Part shown: one piece after another, positions 793-39,650 of the stretch | Position numbering within the stretch: position 1 is the first letter of the stretch | Layout of the letters: each line of letters starts with the position of its first letter | DNA from: Capsaspora owczarzaki ATCC 30864 | Taxonomy: Eukaryota > Opisthokonta > Filasterea | DNA: 64,000 bases | Reading direction: 5' to 3' | NCBI RefSeq assembly: GCF_000151315.2 | Contig: NW_011887301.1 | Span: 1,168,409 to 1,232,408, forward strand | Notes under the pieces: model-generated | Told to the model about the DNA's origin: nothing | What the model saw: only the letters and a program-made list of their open reading frames with translations | Databases searched by the model: none | Made by a program: the position numbers and the translations under genes

Positions 793-3240
793 GGGATAAC
801 ATTGGAGACCCGGGGCACCACCAACCGAAAAAAAAAAAAAAGGAAAAAAAGGAAAAAAAAGGAAAAAAAAAGGAAAAAAAAAGAAAAAAAAAAGGAAAAA
901 AAAGGAAAAAAAAAGGAAAAAAAAAGGAAAAAAAAGGAAAAAAAGGAAAAAAGGAAAAAAGGGTTTTCGTTTGACTGAGGGATCGCCCTCTGCCTCACTT
1001 GTTCACAAGAACACAACACAAACACATCTAGCGATTGCCCTTGATGGCTTGTGCGACTGTGCTATGTGGATGATTGAGCACGGACGGAACAAAAAAAAAA
1101 AAAACGAAAAAAGAAAACGAAAGAAAAAAAAACCGAAAAAAGCGCCTCGGCCGACACCATGAGTTGCAGCGCAGAGCGAGCACGGCGCGTTCTGCCGCCA
1201 CCGCGTCTTCAGAAATACATTGCTGACATGAACTGCTTGCGGCTGGAAGTGCGATCCATCGCCATCGGCCACGGATCAACGTGACAGGAAACCCTCAAAC
1301 CTTAAAAAAGAAAAAAAGTGGAAAAAAAAGGAAAAAAAAAGCTTTTTTCGGCACTTGGATGGAGGTGCTGGCTGGCTTCGCTTCCGAAAAGAACGTCTCG
1401 GGCGACACTGCTCTGTCGTCAATGGGGAAAAAGGACGCTGCGGATCCTGGCCACTGAGCGGCAGCAGGAGAACGAGGGCGACGAGAAGAGAGAAAGAAGA
1501 AGAAGAAGAAGAAAAAAAAAAGCCAGCTTGGATTTCAGCGTGGGAGAGATCAACCACAGCCCCAAAGCTCACCCCGCCCAACAAGACGCTCCGAAGGGAG
1601 GGGGGGGGATGGCACTCCCGCGTCCTTGACTATGGAACGACTTGGATGGATCATAACAACACCCCAGCATCAAACCAAGCCACCTCAAGAGCGGAGGAAA
1701 CAAGCGAGACGAGCAGGAAGAAGAAAAAAAAAAATCAAAAACCACAGAAAAAAAAAAGTCGATTTTTTTTCTTTTCTTTTTCTTGTCGTTTCTTCTCTCT
1801 TGGCTTTGTCCTGGCTTGTCTGGGTGCTTGTCTCTCGAGTAGGTCGTGCTGTGCTGGGGATCGGACATGCACATCTGAGGCTTGCAGTGTTACCTTTTGC
1901 AACAGAAATCTAACGGAAGGAGAAAAAAGAAGAGGGAAAAGAGAGGGGAAAAAAAGAAAAAAAAAAAAGAAAAAAGAAAGAAAAAAAAAAAAGAAGAAAA
2001 AAAGTCGGAGTTTGCGGATTGGGAAAAAAACGCTTTCGAGTGAGCTTTGGCTGGATTTGGATGGTTGGACAAGATGAAGCGATGGTGAGATTGTCAGAAA
2101 CGAAGCGCAAGAAAAAAATGGACGAGGGAGGAAATGTGGAAGGGAGAGAGAACGACAGGCTGGGAAGGAAGGGGAGAGACCAAAAGGGATGAACATGAGG
2201 GAAAGCGTGAAAACCTGTCAACTTGTTTTTGGACTTTGACTTTGTTAGTTTTGTTGGAGTTTGGGTGGCCCCTCACGACTCCCACGGTTTCGTGAGGCTG
2301 GCCACGTCGATGTGTGCCGTTGAGTTTGCTGGTCGTTTGAAGATCCATCGCGAGGGGCGAGGAAGTGCACGCTTGTGGGATCAGGGCGTGGAAGGAGGTG
2401 GATCAACAACAAAAATGGTAGCCCTTTTCCCTTCTTGAGTGCCACACCTGAAAGGCCCTCGAGTCAGACCGTGTCAGCTGCAAGACATCAATGCCAGTCG
2501 ACTTGAAGCAACCAGAGCAGAGACAAATGGCACAAAGTCACGCCAAACCACATGATTCAAGTCACGACGACAACAAACAAATCACACAACAACAGCACAT
2601 CCACCACATTCACAACACCAGCATCTGCTTCATAGCTCACAATGTTGTGCTTCGAAAGGACGTGGAAGTATCGTGAGGTTGGAATCGCGACGGAGAAGGA
2701 TTTTTTTGACAAGTTTCGTTTGTTTTGGGGTCTGACAAACAATTCCGCGCTGCAGCAGCTTCATCTGACATTGACTTCCCTCCCCGACTTCGATTTGATG
2801 CCTATTCTTCAGAGCAACATCTCTTCAAGTCTCAGGGGAGCTGGAGATTGCAAGAGGACTCGGAAATGTCCAATCAATTCGAAAGTTGTCGCTGAATGAC
2901 TTGAAAACGCCCTTTGCTGCCCCGAGTAAGAAGACTCGTTTTTGCACCTGTCCACTGGCTAGAACATTTCTCATCGCACAAGAGTTCGTGGCGGTGACCA
3001 GCTTGGCTGAAGCACACAACAAGGCACAAAGTGCAGCATTCGCACGTACAACTTTTTCATCTCCGTTCGCCTTCGCTTCAACTCGATAACACTTCTACCC
3101 TATTCTTGATCATTCCAACCACCTTTCAGAATCGAGCAAGACCTCATCTGAGAAGCTTGTTCCAAGTCTCCTCCAATTGGAGTTCAGTCCACTCGTTTTT
3201 TTTTTTTTTTTTTTTTTTCCGACTGACACACTTTGTAACA
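1..3240. other. A/G-rich region without a supportable gene
   Basis: The + strand is dominated by A- and G-rich runs, and the long open frames here are poly-Lys or poly-Phe artefacts. Small GC-richer patches occur (about 1140-1290, 1355-1480, 1545-1625 and 2240-2420) but give no recognisable protein and no consistent splice pattern. An exon of a gene extending beyond the left edge cannot be excluded. The last part, with a T-run at about 3198-3219, is the presumed promoter and 5' UTR of the XPB gene that starts at 3241. Confidence 0.5.
829..965. repeat. Imperfect (GGA5-8)n polypurine tandem repeat
   Basis: About 15 units of GG followed by five to nine A, with one unit lacking a G, run without interruption and end just before a normal-composition patch. 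All purines lie on the + strand, so the tract could form a triplex or rigid A-tract DNA. No function can be read from it. Confidence 0.85.
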
Positions 3241-7153: not shown

Positions 7154-10100
7154 ATGGCACGGTCGCGGCTGGCAATCCTTCTCGTTGTGCTCTGCGTCGC
7201 TCATTTCGCCGACGCACAATCGGCTTCGTGTTCGAACGCGCCTGCGTTCACCGGGTCGAGTGGTGCGGCACGCCCGTATACCGGATCCATTGGCCTGTAC
7301 AACGCGCCGTACGAAAGACCTCAAGGCGGGAGCAACATTGGCGGCGCAAAATGCTTGACTTGGCAATATACTCCACTAACTGCAGGAACCATCAACATGA
7401 CCACCTGCGGCTTGGTGTCTGACGATACGATGATGTTTCTTTCGAGTGGCTCTTGTGTCAACAATTTCGGCACTATTCTCAACCAGATAGCCGACGACAG
7501 CTGCGGCCTCCAATCAACCTTGTCACTCTCAATCAATGCGAGCACAATCTACTACTTGCACTTGTGCAGGTACGCTTCCGATCGAACCAATCCAGCCTCC
7601 CCAGGACTAGCCAACGGGAATGTCGTGTTTAATTTCCTGTGTCCTGCTGGCATGACGGATCACGATTCGTTGGTTGAGACAGCCTGTGTTGCCTGCGGCG
7701 CGGGCACGGACACCTCAACCGGAGCCAAGGCTGGACCCTGCACCAACTTTAACGTTCCTGCGGGCTCGTTTGATCACGATTCCAACTCTGCCACCGCGGC
7801 GATTACTTGCCCTCCTGGAAACTATGCGCCCGCAGCCGGCACGACGTGCACCACTTGCGGCACTGAAACATGGGACCATGATTCGTCGTCTGCAACTGCC
7901 TGCACTTCTTGCACGTCCGCATGCTCTGCTAGCTCCTTTCAATCGCAGGATTGTACTCCCACGAGCAACCGCATTTGCACTTCGTGTACCAGTCCCTTCT
8001 ATGGCGATGCCACCAACCGCACATGTGTCACCAGGAGGCACTTATCCGCATGACGACACGCGCATGTGCGACTCAGAGTGTCCAGGCACTTGGTACCTTT
8101 AAGGCTCGATTTGTGTTGCGTCGTGTACTTCAAACTTTGCCGACCCAGTAAGCCGCCTTTGCGTTGAAAGCTGCCCTGCACCCAACTATTTCGGTGATGC
8201 TTCTCGAACCTGCGTCACTCCATGCCCCGATGGAACGTACGGAAACCCCTTGAGTTCGCCTCGTGTTTGCGTTTCAACTTGCACAGGCGGGTACTATGCC
8301 GAGCCAATCAGCAAGGTTTGTGTCCAGACTTGTCCTGCTGGGACTTATGGCGACGGTCTGCGGACTCCGCCGTCGTGCTCGGCGAGCTGCACTGGTGGAC
8401 GCTTCAAAGATGACAGCACTCGACAATGTGTTGCGAATTGCCCAGCCAACTCTTGGGCGGACTCTCCGACTGGCACCTGTGCTTCGAGCTGTTCCTCGGG
8501 ACTTTTCAGGCAGAATTCAACTTGGACGTGTGTGGCGGAATGTGATGGGAGCCTCTTTGCAGATCCTACCAGCGGATCATGCGTTGTGTCATGTCTGTCG
8601 CCGACGTACGCAAATTCTCTTGCTACTCCGCCATCGTGCGCGGCGAGCTGCTCTGGTGGACGCTTCAAAGATGACAGCACTCGACAATGTGTTGCGAATT
8701 GCCCAGCCAACTCGTGGGCCGATTCATCTACACACAGTTGCGCCTCGACCTGCTCCGTCGGGTTTGCGCACAATGCCACCTGGTCTTGCGTCAACACTTG
8801 CACTGTCGGCTATGCCGACAACTCGACTCGGTCTTGCGTGACTCGTTGCCCAAGCGGCACTTTTGCTTTGAAGCCGTCTCATTCTTGCGTTGCTGCGTGC
8901 CCATCTGGCTACAAAGCCTCCAACTCCACCAGCTCATGCGATGATGGCTCTTCTGGCGCTCAAAGCGATGGTGGCAGCAGCCCTGTTGCCGCAGCTGCTG
9001 GCGCCGCAGCAGCAGGCGTCGTCGTTCTGATTGCGATCGTGGTCGCGGTTGTACTTCTGCGTCGAAGGAAGCGAAGCCACGGCAACCACAAGATGGAAAG
9101 CACTTCCGCTACTATCGAAATGACCAACCCGAACTTTGCTCCGGGCCACGATCCAGTCTACGATGTTGCTGTTCAAACCAAGCAAAAGAGCTCTTATCCT
9201 GCCTCGACAGCCTACTCCACCCCAGCTGACTACGCACTGCCGCTCATGCCAAACCCCAGCGATCCCGAGTATGCAGCGGTCGGAGGATTGCCGTATTCCA
9301 CGCCGTCAACTGAATACAGCCTTGCAGTGGTCTCAACATCTGCAATGCTGTCATCGCAGATAGCCACTGGCGAGCGCAAGCTGCTCGGACGAGGCGCCTT
9401 TGGAGAAGTGTTTTCCGCGAACGTGTCCATTGCCCTCATTGCTCCCCAGCATCGCCACCTGTTTGCCCCTGGCGCGCAGACGGTCGATGTCGCAGTCAAG
9501 ACTCTGCAATTGGATGCGAACGTTCGAGCGGAGCAAGACTTTGTGCACGAGGCCGAGCTCTTGCGCAGGCTGAACCGCACCAACATTGTCAATGTCCTCG
9601 CGGTGCTCCCAGCCGGACGAGGTCAACCGCAAATGCTCGTTCTGGAGTATGTGCCGTATGGTAAGTTCTTGACAATCGTAGTCCCAGCTGGTGAAGCGGA
9701 TTTTCATTGGTGTTCACTTTCATGAAAACTCGACAGGTGATCTCCGCAACCTGCTTCGGAAATCGGCAAAGAGTGGTGTCGTCTGGTCGCCAGACGAGTA
9801 TGTGCATGTGGCCACCGGTGTTGCTGAAGGCATGGCGTACTTGGAGCAATCGCGCGTGCTTCATCGTGATTTGGCCGCACGGAACATCCTTGTTGGCGAG
9901 CATCTGGTCGCCAAGATTGCCGACTTTGGCTTATCCAGGGAGCTGAATGACAAGGACTATTACAAGTTGCAGTCGAAGCAGAAGTTGCCGATTCGCGTAA
10001 GTCGATTGATTGCCGAGGACGCTTTGGGTCGATGGTTTGTCGTTTCTTGTAGCCTTGTATTTACAGTCTGGTGCATCGTAGTGGATGGCGCCCGAAACAC

Positions 10101-29550: not shown

Positions 29551-31328
29551 TTACAACATATCGATATCAATGCACAGGGCAAACTGCTGAGCTGCGTCAA
29601 CCTCAGCTGGCCGTGTCTCGAGCACACGGCCATCCACGCCAAGGTGTGTCCGGCGCGGAAACGTCGGGTAAATGTCACTGGGCACCACAAAATAGAGCAC
29701 CGCGGGACCCGCTTGTTGCGGCATGCGAGAGATTGCCAGCCGCAAGCCTTCCGATTTGACGGGGTGCGATCGGCTGACAGTCATCTGCAGAAAGACATTC
29801 GGAGAAATAATGGCGTCGACAGCTGCCAAATTACGATTGGTCGGACTGTAGTAGCGGTCGGGGATGCTAAGATCAATCTCAGTCAGCTGACGGAAATTGA
29901 TGCAAGTGAGCGGCCGCAACTGCAACTCGTCACCGACGCCTGTTTCAAGATGACGTCTAGGGAATGTGCCACCTGTCTGAAGACAATTGGACGCGTACTC
30001 CTCAAAAAGCTGCCCACGGAGCGATGCGTGCTCTGGGTTGTCCGCCGCAGCGCTGAGAAAACGCCGAAGTCGATCTCTCTCCTCGGTCCGGAACATTTGA
30101 AAGACTCGCTCGCTAACCCATTTGGAGGCAAACCTCAGGCGGTCACGCGAATAGGGTAGAATACGCCTGCCGCACTCATCAACAGGCCGGTTGGGATCAA
30201 GGGGCAGTACCTCGATATGGAGCACGCGATGCGAGATGTCTTGCTCACCTGCCAGTTCGCCGACAGAGTTGATGACGTTGTGAAGGACGCATTTAGTGAT
30301 GGCGGCCCGGAGAGCTTGAACATCGGCAGCCGCTAATGGCAGTACCTCTCGCGCGATGCCACCCCAGCACAAAAACGCACTTCTGGCGGCCTGCAAGTAC
30401 GCGTCGGCCTCCCGTGTAGCCATGCTTGTTGCAGACCGTTGCAAGTAAGCCTCGATCTCGAGTTCTGACCACACCGGCATCAACAGCAAGCGACCGTGCG
30501 CCTTTCGAAGCTCCCTGTAAATTGGGCGACGCCGGGATGTGACGAGCAGAACTTTAGCGGAGCCGTAGCCACTTGGGGAGTGGGCATCTGCAATGAACCA
30601 GACTTGTTCGTTGCGGAGAGTATCCTCAAAACCATGGTGGCTGTAAGAAGCAGACCCATCGGCACGCAAAAGATAGCGCGTCGCTCGGCGCTTTCCCGCA
30701 GCAGGCTCATAGACAAACGGCAACGAAACATTGTTTTCCCTGTTCTGCCGAAAGATGCGGTACAAAAAGTACGCCGAGAAGGCTGTCTTGCCGATGCCAG
30801 GGTTGCCAGTGACAATCCAGTTCGTCCAAAGCGTGTTTGCAGCGTCGGTGATCACGTCGAAGAGTCCTTCGTAGCTCTCGCGAACCATGAGAACTGAACC
30901 CAAATAAGGATTGCCCAGCCAGAACACGTTTGCAGGAAGAACTAGGAACAGTACGCTGACACTCTCGACTCGGCGTCGCTCCTCGTTCACCTCGCCACGA
31001 TGAAGCGCGCGCCAAGCAAAAGTTGAGTCGTGGGGGCAATAGTTGCCAGCCAGTTCTGCGCTTGACTCGCATACTGCTGTGCCTCTGCGATATTTCCTGC
31101 GTTGCGTGTAGCCGTTGCAAGGTCCTCGTAGTGTCGCAGACGGTCTTGGCTGTGCGCCAGTGCTGCGTTCAATCGAGCAATCTCGGCCTCCAGCCTTTCT
31201 CGTCCGACCGCAGCCGGCGGCAGTTGCTCCACGCGAGGGCGCTGGACTTCGCTCGGAGAACGGTCTGCAGCGAAGGGCGAGAGCGGTCGCCGAACAGAAA
31301 ACTCTTGGCGGTCTTGGCTGTACGACAT
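29551..31328 (-). CDS. Crinkler/RHS-like NTPase-nuclease protein
   Basis: The main open frame covers 30.97-29.55 kb. It carries a STAND/AAA-like NTPase with Walker A GNPGIGKT, a Walker B-like segment VWFIADAH and a sensor-like LLVTSRR. A C-terminal region resembles the restriction-endonuclease-like domain of Crinkler and trypanosome RHS proteins (LTEIDLS, AAVDAII, FLQMTVSRSHPVKSEGLR, VLYFVVPSDIYPTF). By family knowledge these are an NTPase coupled to a nuclease, tied to effectors or selfish-element conflict and fast-evolving multigene families. Upstream, a Ser/Arg-rich start (MSYSQDRQEF at 31328) and a coiled coil (GRERLEAEIARLNAALAHS) read in a different frame. I cannot tell whether an intron near 31 kb joins them or the gene carries a single break. 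It lies beside transposon debris. Substrate and activity unknown. Confidence 0.75.
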
Positions 31329-31389
31329 TCGACAAGAAAGGAAAACAAACAAAACCGAAGACTGTTCATCCTAGTTCGGGCTTTGCATT

Positions 31390-31866: not shown

Positions 31867-32185
31867 AGATCTATCTTGCTCGGACTGCTCAGTTGCTGTG
31901 CGATTTCGTGGTGGATCGATTGCTATCGACTCTGTGTATTCTAGCTGGTCGTTCTCAGTACGGGTTTGTTGGTCTTCCGGTCGAGGTGAAGGTACGCCGA
32001 TTGCTTCCAAAGCAAGTTGTTTGTGAGTTGATGCAGCTCAGTCGCTCTGCTGTGTCGACAGTGCCGCATTCTACGCTTCTTGGACAAGAAGTCGCTCAGG
32101 GTTTTGCGGCTGGTCAACCGCGAGATGCGCAGCATTTGTGACGATGAGCTCGCTCTGAGAATCCAATCACCCGAGCTCGAACCAC

Positions 32186-32303
32186 CCAGCGCTGAGCCAG
32201 CTCAACCCGTCCAATCGCGACCAATACCAAGGTTCGTGCCTCAGCGCTCACGAGAGGGCTCTCCACTACCACTCTTCCCCGCCAATCCGTGGTTTCCTCG
32301 CTA
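32186..32303 (+). repeat. 118-bp direct repeat, left copy
   Basis: Base for base identical to 33970-34087. It is coding-like sequence of the split F-box-like gene and is followed directly by the inserted DNA. Confidence 0.97.
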
Positions 32304-33969
32304 GAGGGGGGTCGCCTGAATATGAACAAAATAAAAGTTGCTGGCTATTCGAGTGCCGCCCGAGTTTTTGACATTAAAGTACTCGACACACTCTTTTAAT
32401 ATATAGGTGCGACGGAGAGGTCGGCGGCGGGCGATGGGTTGGTAGGGTATCGCGTGGCAGTTTCGCTCATTTTGCTGGACGACCATTACGCTTGTTCATA
32501 TTCAGGCGGACGGCCTCTCTGGTCGCGACCATCCTCATCCAGGCGGACCATCTCTGACCGGTGCCTATGTTATCGAGTTAGATCTTCCTATTTCTCGCAA
32601 GAAGCGGGACAGAATCGCGCAGGGGTGGCCGCAGGGCCCGATGGAGGCTCAACCCAGCCAAACAGCCATACGGCGGCACTTTGGATAGGCGAGTCCGAAG
32701 TCCCTTCCGTTATGCAGAAATTGATGTATGCAACATGTATGTTTATTGGATGAACAGGTGTTGGGACGGGAACATCGCGGGGACAAAGCCAAGGTGATTT
32801 GGCCGGTGCGACAGATCCACCAGCGCGGGAGGCGCCTGCACAGCCTGATCGGGACTATCGAGGCGCGCTCGTTGCGAAATACGACCGGGTGCATCATCAT
32901 CATGATCGGGTGCCTGCTCGCGGGCTCGGCGCATTGGACGCAGGCGAACATTTTCCGCCATATTCCGCTTTTCATGTAGCCGTTTGGCGAGACTTCAAAT
33001 ACAGCCTTATTGTCACCCACATCTGCTGTCGCGCTGCGTATCTTGTTGTTTTTCGAGAAGATGATCATAGGCAAGGGCGGGGATGAGCCATCAGCGCAGA
33101 TGGTGAAAACGCCCGTGATGTGCGCCCCGAGTGAATGCTGGTGCCCCCCTTGAACGACCGCAGAACGCGTGTCTGACGAGGGAGTGCAAATGACACGACC
33201 CGCAAAAAAACGGGTCGTGATTTCTGTCTCGTCCATGTTGGAAATCCGACCGGGCTCCTCCACAAGAAGCGGATGCTCATCGAACAGCTGTTTCAAAAGT
33301 CCGGGGAGGCAATCGAGTGTTTCAGCTTGTAAAGCGGCAATCCTGGTGAGCTCCAGCGTTCGACCCTTGCGGATGGCTAGGCGCCCGCGAGCATCGCGCA
33401 GAAAGGCATTCCACCATTCATGGCTCGGCAGACTGCCGGCGAACTGGCGACGCGGGGCGCCCGACATGCGCGGGAGGCGTGAGAGTTTCACAAGATAAGC
33501 GCCCGCCTGCTTCTGGTTGAGACACTGCCCAGCCCGGGCAAACCCCTCCAGCAGCCGGATACAGTACTCCAGTTCATCTTCAGTGAAAATGCTCTGTCCT
33601 CCGCACGATGGGCTCTCCTTGACGAGCTGGAGCACCTGATCGAGCGGGCTGGAACGAATCCACTCGGCTGAATCCGTGTGTTTCGTTTTCCAACCATGAA
33701 CTGTGGTGTGACCGCACTGATAGCCCTGTTCCGCCAGCCGCGCGGCTATGGCCCGTGTTGTCCAGCCTGTAGGGCGATAGATTTCGCCCCCTTGAAGGGT
33801 CACAGAGTCTTGGTAGACAAGCTTGAGAGCGACTGCGACGGCAACATTGTGCTTTTCTCCTTCGGGCGCAGCCTTCACTGCCTGCAGCCACGCGAGGACA
33901 CCGAGTTGCCGCCTCGGATGGCACCCGCCATCGATAAAAAAGAATGACTTTATTATAAATGCAAACTGG
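32304..33969 (-). mobile_element. Inserted 1.67-kb segment carrying a pogo-like transposase
   Basis: Everything between the two 118-bp repeats. It contains a minus-strand pogo-superfamily transposase remnant and, at its left end, a 17-bp inverted-repeat pair. The two outer ends (GAGGGGGGTCGCC and, reading inward from the right, CCAGTTTGCATTT) are not inverted copies of each other, and no simple TA target duplication is seen. Exact identity of the flanking repeats points to a recent event. Confidence 0.7.
32313..32508. repeat. 17-bp inverted repeat pair
   Basis: CGCCTGAATATGAACAA at 32313-32329 returns as its exact reverse complement at 32492-32508, enclosing a 196-bp segment. It could be a small nested MITE-like element or a rearranged transposon end. 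Confidence 0.75.
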
Positions 33970-33998
33970 CCAGCGCTGAGCCAGCTCAACCCGTCCAA
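32649..33998 (-). pseudogene. pogo/Tigger-like DDE transposase, degraded
   Basis: A 449-codon minus-strand open frame resembles Tc1/mariner pogo-type transposases (DDE_1, CENP-B/jerky kin). It has an N-terminal helix-turn-helix-like part (GWTTRAIAARLAEQGYQC ... VHGWK), then PSHEWWNAFL, the first catalytic Asp in NMDETEIT, DGSSPPLPMIIF, and NGYMKSGIWRKMF. After that the frame loses family resemblance (MMMMHPVVF onward), so the second and third catalytic residues are not visible and a frameshift is likely. No in-frame ATG precedes the domain. The open frame runs into the right 118-bp repeat. It is probably inactive, although the reading frame is otherwise long, which argues for recent decay. 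Confidence 0.7.
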
Positions 33999-34087
33999 TC
34001 GCGACCAATACCAAGGTTCGTGCCTCAGCGCTCACGAGAGGGCTCTCCACTACCACTCTTCCCCGCCAATCCGTGGTTTCCTCGCTA
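33970..34087 (+). repeat. 118-bp direct repeat, right copy
   Basis: Identical to 32186-32303. Here the reading frame continues through to the natural end of the split gene. Confidence 0.97.
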
Positions 34088-34338
34088 CGACATTGAGCCA
34101 TTCCGACGTCCGCGCTTCATGTGGTCTCCCTTTCATTCTCACGACGGCGATTACGACGATTCCTTCACCATCTGATATTTCTGAGCATGTCTTCATTTTG
34201 TCAACACTGCTTTTCTGTACAATAACAACGCAACCAAATCGATGAACAAATTTTCTCAATGAAATTTCCATTCAATCTTTTTTTTTTTTTGTTTTTTTTT
34301 TTGTTCTCTTTCAGTGTGTTTCCATTGCATTTTCACTC

Positions 34339-37300
34339 ATGCAGGCGTCGACTGCTGGCGGGATGTCCGTCCCTCCTTCTCCACAGCAGCAGCAGCAGCA
34401 GCAGCAGTTGAATCTATCTCAGCTGCGTTTCCCACTCGCGCCCGAGGCAGTCGCGCAACTCACTCAGGTTTGGTTCTCCGAAGCATTAGCACTGACACGT
34501 CTCCTCACCACTTTCGCTTGTATCCCCCCTTCCAAAATCCACGCTTCACCAAACTTCTTTGCTGCTCTTGCTTCACAACAAAACTCCATCGCATTTCGGT
34601 TTCGTTTGCTTTCGTCGTTTTGATCACCTTCGACGTCGAAACTGAAAATTTGCCGCCAAAATGCGAGATCTCTTTTTTTTCGTTTTTTTTGGCGCCAACG
34701 CTTTCAACGCTTTCAACGCTTTTCCACCTATCGACTTGGATCGACTTGTTGGTTGACCGTGTCTCCAATGCGAGTGTGGTGCGGGGCGAGCGAAGCGCAA
34801 TGCAAAAGTCCTGTTTGGAACTCACTTTGTGTTTTTTGACTTGATTTTTGGACAGATCCTTCGCCTCAACCCACAGGCGCCTATCGCCGAGCAGCTGACG
34901 CGCATCCTGGCGCAGCATCAGATTGTGGTGCAGCAGCTGCAGCAGCAGGCGGCGTCGAGCGGGGCAGTCGCAACGTCGCCTGCTCTGCCAAAAACGCCGC
35001 TGAGCCGACACGCTCCTCCAGGGTCTGCCAGCATCTCTGGCGGCAGCAGCGCTGCTAGTGTTGGTGCTGGTGCTGGTGGTGCTGCTGCAATGATGCCGCC
35101 GCCTCCGGCTGGGCCACAGACACCCGCGCTGACATTCCCGTCGCTGCATGGCGCGCTCGCATCGCAGCAGCTCACGCCAGAGCAACAGGCGCAGATGCGC
35201 GCCCAGCTGCAACTCTTCCAAGCCCTTTCTCGACAGCGGATGGCTGCTCCTCAGCTGTCTGCAGCGGCCATTCAACAGCAACAGCAGCAACAACAGCAGC
35301 AGACGCAGACGCAGCAACGAACGTTGGAGATGCCGCCGCGCCCGCACGGCCAGGCGCTGCTCAGCTCTGCATCGCTCCGGCCGCTGGGACTGGATCCTGT
35401 CGAGATGCAAGTCCGCCGTGAGCATCACATTGCCACGTCGATCGCAGAGCGCATTCGCGAGCTGAGTGCCATCCCGGTCACGGCCCCGAAGGACGTGCGG
35501 ATCCGAGCGGCGATTGAGCTCAAGTCGCTCCAGCTGGTCGGCCTGCAACGCTCGCTGCGCCAGCAAATCACTCGGACCATGCAGGTGGACACGACGCTGG
35601 AGACGGCACTCGATCGTGCGGCGTACAAGCGGGCCAAGAAGCTTGCCGTCCGCGAGCCCAAAAAGACCGAGCTGCTCGAAAAGCAGCAGCGCGCGGAAAC
35701 AGAGCGGCGACGCCACGCCAAGCACTTTGAGCGCCTCAACGCCATCCTGTCGCACGCCCAGCGCTTCCGCGACTTTCACGAGGCCGTGCACGCCAAAGTG
35801 CAGCGCATCGGCCGTGACCTCCAGTTGCACAACGAGCGTCTCGAAAAGCAGCGCAAAGCCGAGTCCGAGCGCCTTGAAAAGGAACGCATGCGTCGCTTGA
35901 TGGAGGAGGACGAAGAAGGCTACCGCAAGCTCATCGACTCTGAGAAGGACAAGCGTCTGTCCTACCTGCTCAACCAAACCGACGAGTACATTGAAAAGCT
36001 GGGCGCGCTCGTCCAGCAGCACCAGCAGAACGAACGCACCCGAGGGCAGACAAAGAAGAAGCGCAGGCGGAGGAAGCCAAAGCAGCCGACTGCTGCTGCT
36101 GCTGCTGCTACTTCCACCGAGCCCACACCCATGGCGACCGATGCAACTGCTGCAGCTTCGTCCGACACTGCTGCTGCTGCTGCCGAAGTGCAGCCCACTG
36201 CGATGGAGGTGGATGCAACGCCAGCTGCCAGCACCAACGCGGCGGCCGCAACAAAACCAGACGAAGACGACGAGTACACGAGTGGCTCTGGAGAAGACGA
36301 CGACGACGACGACGACGACGCCAACTCGGACGACGAAGTGAACGCGTACGCGGCAGAGCACCAGGGCGACAAGTCGAGCTTCTCTCTTGCGCACAACATC
36401 CGCGAGCCCATCACCGAGCAGCCGACCATGCTGGAGTTTGGCAAGCTGAAAGAGTACCAGCTCAAGGGCCTCGAGTGGCTCGTCTCGCTGTATAACAACA
36501 ACCTGAACGGCATCCTGGCCGACGAGATGGGCCTTGGCAAGACCATTCAGACCATTTCGCTGATTGCCTACTTGATTGAAAAGAAGCAAATGATGGGTCC
36601 GTATCTGGTTGTCGTCCCGCTCTCCGTCTTGTCCAACTGGCAGCTGGAATTCGAGCGCTGGGCGCCGTCCATCGTCAAGCACGTGTACAAGGGCAGCCCG
36701 GCCGCGCGCCGTGCGCTCCACCCCATCATTCGCGGCGGCAAGTTCAACGTGCTGCTGACCACCTACGACTATATCGTGCGTGACAAGAATGTGCTCAGCC
36801 GTGTCGCGTGGAAGTATGTGATTGTCGACGAGGGCCACCGCGTGAAAAACCACAGCGGCAAGTTGAACACGGTGCTGACCCAGTACTTCCCCGCTCCCAA
36901 CCGACTCTTGCTCTCCGGCACCCCGCTGCAAAACAACCTGCCCGAGATGTGGGCGCTGCTCAACTTTTTGCTGCCCACCATTTTCAACTCGGTGGACAAC
37001 TTTGAGCAGTGGTTTAACGCGCCCTTTGCCAACACGACCGAAAAGGTCGAGCTGTCGGGCGAAGAGAGCATTCTCATTATTCGTCGATTGCACAAAATCC
37101 TGCGCCCCTTCCTCCTGCGCCGTCTCAAGCGCGAGGTCGAGTCGCAGCTGCCCGACAAGGTCGAGTACGTGGTCAAGTGCGGCATGAGCCAGCTGCAAAA
37201 GACAATGTACTCGTTCGTCAAGCGCAAGGGCGTGCTGCTCACGAGCGCGCAAGACACCGACCCCAGCGCGGCCAAGAAGCTGCAGCAAAAGCCGACGGGC

Positions 37301-39650
37301 GTGCGAGTGCTGGCCCACACGCTTATGCAGCTGCGAAAGATTTGCAACCACCCCTTCCTGTTCGAAACGCTTGAGCGCGGCGTGAGCAGGCACATGGGTT
37401 TTGGCGGCGCGATTATTACCGGATCGCTTGTGGTTCGCGCAAGTGGCAAGTTTGAAATGTTTGACCGCTTGCTGACAAAGCTGCACCGCACCGGGCACCG
37501 TGTTCTCTTGTTCAGCCAAATGACCCAGTGTCTGACGATTCTCGAGGATTACTGCAACTACAACAACATCCTGTACCTTCGCTTGGACGGCAACACCAAG
37601 CCCGACGAGCGCGCAGAACTCTTGACCAAGTTCAACGCGCCCAACTCTCCGTACAACCTGTTTTTGCTGTCGACACGCGCGGGTGGCCTGGGTCTCAACC
37701 TGCAGACCGCCGACACTGTCGTCATTTTCGACTCTGACTGGAATCCCCACCAAGATTTGCAAGCGCAAGACCGCGCACACCGCATCGGCCAGAAAAACGA
37801 GGTGCGTGTCATTCGCTTTGTCACGGCAGACTCTGTGGAAGAGCGCATGCTTGCTGCAGCGCAGTTCAAGCTGGACATGGACAAGAAGGTCATCCAAGCG
37901 GGCAAGTTTGATCAAAAGTCGACCTCGTCCGAGCGTCGGCACCTGCTCGAGCAGCTGATGGACGACAGCAAGGAGGACGACGAGGAAGAGGCCAAGGACG
38001 ACGAAAGCTCCGTCCACGATGACGATACCCTCAACCAGATGCTCGCGCGCAGTGAGGACGAGCTGCGCATCTTCCAACAGCTCGACAAGGAGCGCCAGCA
38101 AGCTCCCGCTTTTGACTATCCCAATGGCATCCACACGACCTCCCGGTTGATGGAAGAAAACGAGTTGCCCGATTGGCTTCTCGTCGACGATGAGGAAATT
38201 GACCGCCTCGTCAACGACGCACCAGCCGTCGAGTACGGACGCGGCCAACGCGAGCACAAGGATGTCTTGTATGATGATGGGTTGACGGAAGGCGAATTTT
38301 TGGATGTAAGATGGTCGGCCGAATGCAAGCAAAGCTGCGGATGTATCGCAGGTTCTTTGTGTGTATGTTGGCTCACCTGCATTTTCTTATTTGTTCATTT
38401 TTTTGTTTTCTTGTTCCTAGCTCGTCGAGGACGGACAGTTGGAGGACGAGTTGAAGGACCGAGTCACCAAGAAACGGCGATTGGAAGACAGCGCGGCTGC
38501 CAGTGATGAAGACGGAAGCACTCCGGCCCGTCGCAACCGCGTTCCCAGTGCTCGCGTAAGGGGTTTGTGAAAAGCGGGGGGGGAGGGGAAGGGGCGGGCG
38601 TGTTGCATGAATGAATGTGGTGAGAAGTGAAATTCATTGTGGTTTTTTTCTTCTTCTTTTTCTGTTCTGGTGGCGCTGCAGAGTGGCGGGGCAACACCAA
38701 CCGCCGCGGCAGATATGCCAAACAAGCGCGTTCGAACCGAGCCGGTGAACATCAACCCAAAGTTTGTGGCGCAACTGCGGCGCCTGTTGGATGCCATGCT
38801 CGAAGAAAAGGACGAGTAAGCCCTGCTTGATGTTTTTGTCCGATCTGTCGTCGTCGTGGAGTCTCTGTATATCTGACCTATCTCTCGCGTGATGGCAGAA
38901 TGGGACGCCCACTTGCCGATCCGTTCGTTCGACTTCCGACTCGCCGCGAACTTCCCAGCTACTATGCCCTTATCAAAGAGCCGATGGACTTTAACAAGAT
39001 TCAGGTGCGGAATTGATGTTCAGTTGTTGGCTGATGACGAGTGCATCGAATGTTCACGCCCATTTGTGTTTCGACACCGAACAGAAACGACTCGATCAAG
39101 GCGGGTACAAGTCGATCGATGACCTCACCAAAGACGTTTCCTTGATGATCTCCAATGCCCAGCATTATAACATTGACACGTCGCAGATCTTTTTGGATTC
39201 CCAAGTGCTTTTTGTGAGTATCCGAACGAGCGGTCTAGCGGGTTGGTTGCTTTTTCCTTGTTGTGCGTTTCGTGCTTGTCCTGACTGTGCTGGTTGTATC
39301 ACACAGAATGTGTACACTAAGGCAAAAGCACATCTGGAAGGCGAGCCAATCGAACCGTATCAACTGGACGCGCCCGCGCCAACACCATCCACATCAACTC
39401 CGACCTCCTCGACAAGACGCAAGGCACGCTACGATGAGGACGATGACGACGACGATGATGATGATGCCGAAGGCGACTCGCGATTTGAGAGCGAGAACTC
39501 GGAGGATGACGAATACACTGTGAGTTTTTGACGGAAGCGGGGTGGGCGGTGGAGTGAGATTTTCGTGCTGACTTTGAATTTCTCGACTTGCTTCAAACCC
39601 AGAAAACCCGTGCCACTCCCGGAAGGCGAGGACGACCTCGTAAATCGTGA
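34339..39650 (+). CDS. SWI/SNF ATPase, SMARCA2/4 (BRM/BRG1)-type
   Basis: Catalytic subunit of a BAF/SWI-SNF remodeller, sliding or evicting nucleosomes in the nucleus. Exons: 34339-34467, 34856-38305, 38421-38555, 38682-38815, 38899-39004, 39085-39213, 39307-39519 and 39603-39650; phases agree (1447 aa). Domains in order: poly-Gln N-terminus; QLQ-like LTPEQQAQMRAQLQLFQALS; HSA and post-HSA at about residues 230-425 (ERMRRLMEEDEEGYRKLID is near-identical to BRG1); acidic linker; Snf2 ATPase with ADEMGLGKT near 593 and DEGHRVKN near 700; helicase C with SQMTQCLTILEDY; SnAC region; bromodomain near 1240-1360 (PSYYALIKEPMDF, NAQHYN); terminal AT-hook GRRGRPRKS. HSA plus SnAC plus bromodomain separates it from ISWI, CHD and INO80. 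No clear BRK domain is seen. The short last exon is chosen because it restores the AT-hook found in BRG1. Confidence 0.95.

What the first reader, a model, noticed from the sequence alone, without database searches (positions are those of the whole stretch)
32186..34087. Transposon inserted in an F-box-like gene between two identical 118-bp direct repeats
The 118-bp copies at 32186-32303 and 33970-34087 are identical base for base, and between them lies 1666 bp with a pogo-like transposase. Pogo elements normally make a 2-bp TA duplication, so a 118-bp duplication is unusual. It suggests break repair with long staggered ends, capture of transposon DNA during repair, or an unrecognised element type. 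The duplicated stretch is coding-like, and the right copy keeps the natural end of the gene.
Basis: partly seen in the sequence, partly recalled or inferred. Interest (0 to 1): 0.72.

Follow-up and report, generated by a model that had tools for sequence, protein, structure and literature searches.

The report
Clipped transposon beside its empty site
A jumping gene of an ordinary, known type sits in an F-box gene of what is probably an animal-related amoeba; the odd 118-letter repeat is not how it inserted but a second copy of the neighbouring gene standing where the jumping gene's own right end should be, made either by the genome assembly or by DNA repair.

Summary
The two 118-bp copies (32186-32303, 33970-34087) are identical in this assembly, but they are not a long target duplication. 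The genome holds four other copies of the element: two full-length, 3,190 bp with an 869-aa pogo-type (DDE_1) ORF, and two 1,785-bp internal-deletion derivatives. All four have 28-bp inverted repeats (one with two changes) and an ordinary TA duplication. The window copy, a third derivative, has a normal left end but lacks exactly its last 121 bp plus TA, 123 bases. In their place stand 118 bp of its own left flank, then an intact empty-site sequence. So an occupied left half is joined to an empty right half. A copy of another pogo family (C9:249079) shows something alike in miniature: 6 bases lost, 7 of left flank gained. Near-equal lengths, two unique one-base indels near the junction, N-gaps in sister copies and a published statement that the Capsaspora culture was polymorphic (host inferred) favour a haplotype-chimeric assembly join (about 0.5). 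Repair from an empty homologue is the main rival (about 0.4). Neither reads nor a second assembly could be seen. Low interest.

The parts
31992..32061 (+). 70-bp intron of the F-box gene, inferred
   Evidence: GT...AG in the sequence; joining the two sides changes the PF00646 match from E 2.6e-4 (exon-2 frame alone) to 2.9e-7, with PF12937 at 1.2e-7
32062..32303 (+). F-box gene, last exon up to the insertion site
   Evidence: translation; Pfam
32186..32303 (+). 118-bp repeat, left copy: the normal left flank of the insertion
32302..32303 (.). TA target dinucleotide at the intact left end of the element; with the next base it makes an in-frame TAG stop
   Evidence: the other 4 copies also begin after TA
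32304..32331 (+). left terminal inverted repeat, 28 bp
   Evidence: the two ends of the full-length C17 copy agree over 28 bp; the window copy has the same left end
32304..33969 (-). internally deleted, right-truncated copy of a pogo-type transposon (bases 1-671 and 2070-3069 of the 3190-bp form, with 6 bp counted in both; transposase on the minus strand)
32969..32974 (.). junction of the internal deletion (about 1.4 kb), 6-bp overlap, shared with the C5 copy
   Evidence: element 666-671
33896..33920 (.). two extra single G bases (33896, 33920) found in none of the 4 other copies, about 50 and 75 bp before the abnormal junction
33969..33970 (.). abnormal junction: element position 3069 joined to the start of a second copy of the left flank; no shared base at the breakpoint
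   Evidence: read from the sequences
33970..34087 (+). 118-bp repeat, right copy, in place of the element's last 121 bp plus TA
34088..34175 (+). natural 3' end of the F-box gene; together with the right copy it forms an undisturbed empty-site sequence

Best explanation
Shown: the element is an ordinary pogo-type transposon with 28-bp inverted repeats and a TA target. The window copy is a non-autonomous deletion derivative inserted normally at a TA in the last exon of an F-box gene. Its right 121 bp and right TA are absent, and 118 bp of left flank stand there in nearly the same register, followed by an intact empty site. Inferred: the sequenced culture held both an occupied and an empty version of this site, and the assembled sequence switches from occupied-version reads (left flank into the element) to empty-version reads (starting 118 bp left of the TA). 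The repeat would then be a haplotype-chimeric join in the assembly and not a molecule in the cell.
For: Four of 4 other copies carry TA on both sides and the identical 121-bp right tail. The replaced and replacing stretches are nearly equal in length, 123 against 118 bases, as expected if reads were lined up on the shared right flank; independent breakpoints have no reason to agree. The C9:249079 copy of another pogo family shows a similar near-equality, 6 against 7 bases. In the 5-copy alignment of the shared parts, the only one-base indels private to one copy (apart from alignment artefacts at the deletion point and the N run) are two extra G about 50 and 75 bp before the junction, like the poor end of a read; the window copy also has two private substitutions elsewhere. 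The assembly has N-gaps inside sister copies (189 N in the C10:174135 copy; N at the broken end of the C10:1344018 copy of another family). Carr and Suga 2014 (PMC4007536, passages) say that the C. [quoted passage not shown] Kim et al. 2025 (PMC12221973, figure-legend passage; author name recalled) report heterozygous deletions on C. owczarzaki chromosome 2.
Against: The join carries no N run, so some read layout must have bridged it. No reads, coverage or second assembly could be examined. Of 49 DNA-transposon copies whose two ends could be judged, only 2 show a copied flank (the window copy and, in miniature, C9), so such joins are not common in this assembly. One-base length differences between copies also occur elsewhere (most Tc1-like copies 1655-1658 bp), so the two extra G are only suggestive. 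The replaced and replacing stretches are no more alike than chance (12% of 2000 shuffles and 16% of 1119 real TA-ending windows score as high). The C9 case rests on 5 bases beside the TA and could be a small local change. LTR retrotransposons could not serve as a control. That the host is Capsaspora is inferred, not stated by a tool.
Confidence: 0.5

Rival explanations
1. Real rearrangement by repair in the cell. After normal insertion, the right end was cut or broken (an abortive excision). The element end lost 121 bp, the right flank invaded the empty homologue (or an empty sister) and copied the sequence left of the TA, and the two ends were joined end to end without homology.
For: It gives exactly the observed structure: intact left end at TA, lost right end, extra copy of left flank, perfect empty site on the right. 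The junction has no microhomology (sequences), as in end joining. Errors near the junction would suit error-prone synthesis. In rice, 86 of 94 DNA-transposon excisions came with flank deletions and/or filler DNA, with fillers of 1-123 bp, 13 bp on average (PMC4423477, passages seen). A case in another pogo family (C9:249079) would be the same process with 5 copied bases.
Against: It needs the lost and the copied lengths to agree by chance in both cases (121 and 116 bases without the TA; 4 and 5). The two private indels lie on the element side, which this scheme need not resynthesise.
Confidence: 0.4
2. One-ended insertion of a broken element. The transposase joined only the left end at TA; the target broke with a long stagger (118 nt), which was filled in and joined to the broken right end of the element.
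For: A filled-in 118-nt stagger would give the same sequence, with the left end precise and the right end broken inside the element.
Against: All 4 other copies show two-ended insertion with a 2-bp TA. The agreement of 118 with 123 bases is unexplained. No 118-nt stagger is known to me for this superfamily (recalled).
Confidence: 0.07
3. The 118 bp is a true target-site duplication of this element type, or a long terminal direct repeat of the element.
For: Only the bare geometry: two identical copies flank the insert.
Against: 4 of 4 other copies have a TA duplication and no longer direct repeat at their edges. The 118 bp was found only at this locus and is coding sequence of the host gene. 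The window copy lacks its right inverted repeat.
Confidence: 0.01

Closest known systems
pogo-type DNA transposons of Capsaspora owczarzaki (families Cop1-Cop5; Carr and Suga 2014, PMC4007536)
   Same: DDE_1 transposase, terminal inverted repeats, TA target site; young, nearly identical copies (paper passages and sections)
   Different: Which Cop family this is could not be settled: I saw no family sequences in the sections read and could not open the supplements. The window copy is internally deleted and lacks its right end.
Excision and repair scars with filler DNA at DNA transposons in rice (PMC4423477, PMC5023962; passages seen)
   Same: Loss of sequence at a transposon edge plus inserted filler of up to about 120 bp
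   Different: There the element has left. Here the element stays, and the filler is the opposite flank in near-register.
Haplotype-chimeric or false-duplication joins in assemblies of polymorphic material (recalled)
   Same: Identical short duplication where an occupied and an empty version of one site meet
   Different: No N gap marks the join here.

Membership tests
pogo-type (Tc1/mariner superfamily) DNA transposon | DDE_1 transposase in intact copies of the family | tested here: met
   869-aa ORF in the C17 and C9 copies; both places match PF03184, and the C17 ORF matches at E 2.1e-15. The window copy alone gives no Pfam hit.
pogo-type (Tc1/mariner superfamily) DNA transposon | TA target-site duplication | tested here: met
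   TA on both sides in 4 of 4 other copies; in the window copy TA borders the element at the left end only
pogo-type (Tc1/mariner superfamily) DNA transposon | terminal inverted repeats at both ends | tested here: inconclusive
   28 bp, perfect in 3 of 4 other copies and with two changes in the left one of C5; in the window copy the left one is present and the right one is missing. The family passes, this copy is broken.
Element with a long (118-bp) target duplication | Other copies of the element flanked by long direct repeats | tested here: not met
   0 of 4 other copies (flank comparison; one weak 43-bp, 79% match at C5 lies away from the edges)
Element with long terminal direct repeats | The 118 bp occurs in other copies of the element | tested here: not met
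   118 bp found only at this locus
Haplotype-chimeric assembly join | Reads of separate occupied and empty alleles and none across the junction | not testable with these tools
   no reads and no second assembly available
Haplotype-chimeric assembly join | Replaced and replacing stretches of near-equal length (my own criterion) | tested here: met
   123 against 118 here; 6 against 7 in the C9:249079 copy
Haplotype-chimeric assembly join | The same kind of join at retrotransposons, which do not excise | tested here: inconclusive
   8 LTR loci looked at out of 29 LTR matches, edges only; opposite flanks were not compared

The most novel reading that the evidence does not exclude
The junction is real DNA. 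Pogo-type elements in this lineage sometimes suffer a break at the transposase-side end only, which is healed by copying the opposite flank from an empty homologue, in near-register, leaving a one-ended, immobilised element beside a restored empty site. Two copies in two families (window, and C9:249079-252374) show it. A side effect: the duplicated 118 bp contains AGGT, so splicing out 32232-34015 would remove the insert exactly and restore the gene, turning the element into a new intron.
Probability: 0.2. Interest if true: 0.45.

Novelty: new member of a known kind. Interest (0 to 1): 0.2.

Why it matters
As a transposon it is ordinary. The case matters mainly as a warning that a long direct repeat flanking an insert can come from a junction between occupied and empty versions of one site, and that comparing sister copies settles the question quickly. 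If the junction proves real, it would be a clear small example of one-ended transposon damage healed from the empty homologue, with a ready-made splice path that could save the host gene.

Tried and rejected
Rejected: a 118-bp target duplication, and long terminal repeats of the element. Tested and found weak: resemblance between the lost 123 bases and the 118-bp flank as a reason for the switch point (12% of 2000 shuffles and 16% of 1119 real TA-ending windows score as high).

Survey for similar broken ends (the searches score only best candidates, so totals are lower bounds). This family: 5 copies, 4 normal, the window copy abnormal. Second pogo family, 12 young copies: 10 intact from end to end, 1 with both ends present around a nested Tc1-like element, 1 running into N and not judged; about 10 older or short fragments left out. 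Third pogo family: 4 intact, 1 older internal-deletion derivative with both ends, 1 with the small left-flank replacement (C9:249079), 1 running into N and not judged; 4 other fragment places left out. Main Tc1-like family, from the 30 loci cut: 22 young copies, 21 with both ends (one, L064, with a one-base change), 1 (L063) truncated by 47 bp without a copy of the opposite flank; a 23rd, older copy (L080, 94% identical) is truncated, also without a copied flank. Second Tc1-like family: both inverted ends found in L051, L053, L054 and L075. Sum of copies judged: 49, of which 45 normal, 2 truncated without copied flank, 2 with copied flank. Not judged: L052 (its locus is cut), L073, L079 and L028 (no inverted repeat found). 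The 31 further PF13358 matches had no loci.

LTR retrotransposons as a non-excising control: 29 LTR matches listed, 8 loci fetched and their edges looked at; opposite flanks were not compared and at least two LTRs are cut short (L087, L088), so this control decides nothing. For the C5:248229 copy, 1230 bp of left flank recur without mismatch on the right side, but it lies in a gene of about 500-bp tandem repeats, so it is not comparable; it is counted as intact above because both its ends and TA are present.

The paper on the original genome (PMC3753549) is not held. None of the titles listed names this locus, but none of those searches was aimed at it.

Full report
Observation. The two 118-bp copies are identical and lie 1784 bp apart. 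They are the longest exact direct repeat between separate places up to 8 kb apart in the window, and the own-genome search finds no third copy. The left copy is coding sequence of an F-box gene: an inferred 70-bp intron (31992-32061) and the last exon from 32062. The spliced fragment matches Pfam F-box-like at E 1.2e-7. The undisturbed gene would end 29 residues after the insertion point, and the right copy plus the sequence after it still reads so. As it stands, the left part reads into a TAG stop made by the TA target and the first base of the element.

Whose genome. The window is part of a 27.46-Mb assembly in 29 contigs. Size (recalled as about 28 Mb for C. owczarzaki), six integrin-beta domain matches on four contigs, several pogo and Tc1 families and a chromovirus-like LTR of 160-174 bp (the paper aligned 171 positions for Cocv1) fit Capsaspora owczarzaki. 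This is an inference.

The element. The insert matches four other places (a fifth match, 65% over about 520 bases at C9:1166090, is a distant relative and was not followed). Two are full-length: 3190 bp, TA on both sides, perfect 28-bp inverted repeats, and one 869-aa ORF; the C17 ORF matches DDE_1 at E 2.1e-15 and has no match among solved structures. Two are 1785 bp: C5 has the same internal deletion as the window copy, with a 6-bp overlap at the junction and two changes in its left inverted repeat; the C10:174135 copy has the same length but 189 N across that place. The window copy is thus, most simply, a third member of a non-autonomous derivative that has itself moved. Its transposase frame has lost the later part of the DDE domain and gives no Pfam hit.

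The key comparison. In all four other copies the sequence that ends at window position 33969 goes on for 121 bp, identical in all four, ending in the right inverted repeat, and then TA. In the window copy these 123 bases are missing, and 118 bases of the left flank stand there, directly followed by the right flank. The left end is normal. So the locus is the left half of an occupied site joined to a complete empty site. The 118 bp has nothing to do with target duplication.

Where the join came from. (a) The lost and gained stretches have nearly the same length, 123 and 118. (b) Two extra G bases occur about 50 and 75 bp before the join and in no other copy; the other differences private to one copy in the five-copy alignment of shared parts are substitutions, two of them in the window copy. 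(c) There is no shared base at the breakpoint (sequences). (d) A copy of another pogo family at C9:249079-252374 lacks ACTC plus TA at its right end and has ATCACTA there, the last seven bases of its left flank; 4 of 4 full-length sisters end in ACTC-TA, one of them with a one-base change just before. (e) Carr and Suga describe the sequenced culture as polymorphic and outbred, and expect young insertions to vary if the yeast pattern holds (PMC4007536; outline, passages, part 1 of section 10, section 8, section 5). A later paper shows heterozygous deletions (PMC12221973, figure-legend passage). Points a, b and e fit a switch between reads of two versions of the site. Points c and d fit either reading. 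Against an artefact, the join has no N run, and of 49 copies that I could judge only these 2 show a copied flank (counts in Tried and rejected). The stretches themselves are not more alike than chance.

Mechanism, with steps marked. Shown by comparison: insertion at TA of an already deleted derivative; absence of the right end; presence of a left-flank copy and of an empty-site sequence. Inferred: coexistence of an occupied and an empty version. Open: whether the two were joined by the assembler (0.5) or by repair after a break at the right end (0.4). The repair route has good precedent in general: in rice, excisions left fillers of 1-123 bp (PMC4423477, passages), and repair after excision was tied to single-stranded intermediates and clustered errors (PMC5023962, passages).

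A side observation. The 118 bp contains AGGT. A donor at 32232 and an acceptor ending at 34015 would remove 1784 bases and restore the frame exactly. The acceptor has little pyrimidine tract, and I have no RNA evidence, so this stays a possibility that also requires the repeat to be real.

Verdict. Observation confirmed; interpretation as an unusual duplication or element type not upheld. The element is a damaged copy of a known kind of transposon, and the repeat marks a join of occupied and empty versions of one site.

Noticed in passing
L046/L023 region, G000:C9:249079-252374: Copy of another pogo family whose right end (ACTC plus TA) is replaced by ATCACTA, the last seven bases of its left flank; it also carries a nested 100-bp insert with inverted ends TGTTAGG...CCTAACA and a TCTAG duplication.
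   Followed up: partly
G000:C18:10515-15312 (L048, L036): A pogo-type element with a complete Tc1-like element (117-bp inverted repeats) nested inside it.
   Followed up: partly
G000:C5:247000-254400 (L045, L050, L041): A pogo-type element inserted in a gene of about 500-bp tandem repeats; 1230 bp of the left flank recur without a mismatch on the right side, while other unit comparisons are about 80-92% alike.
   Followed up: no
L085 (C3:1610350-1610610) and L086 (C4:1324270-1324540): Two LTRs on different contigs share the same flanks and the same altered first bases, which suggests a segmental duplication or duplicated assembly.
   Followed up: no
window 29551-31365, minus strand: Open frame of 604 codons with weak P-loop/NACHT/nSTAND3 matches (best E 0.0097, below cut-off).
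   Followed up: no
window 34757-38506, plus strand: SNF2-type chromatin remodeller with HSA, helicase and SnAC domains just downstream of the F-box gene.
   Followed up: no
window 8392-8452 and 8653-8713: Exact 61-bp direct repeat, 261 bp apart.
   Followed up: no
L063, G000:C9:1160445-1160906 area: Tc1-like copy truncated by 47 bp at one end with no copy of the opposite flank, and two mismatches just before the break.
   Followed up: partly
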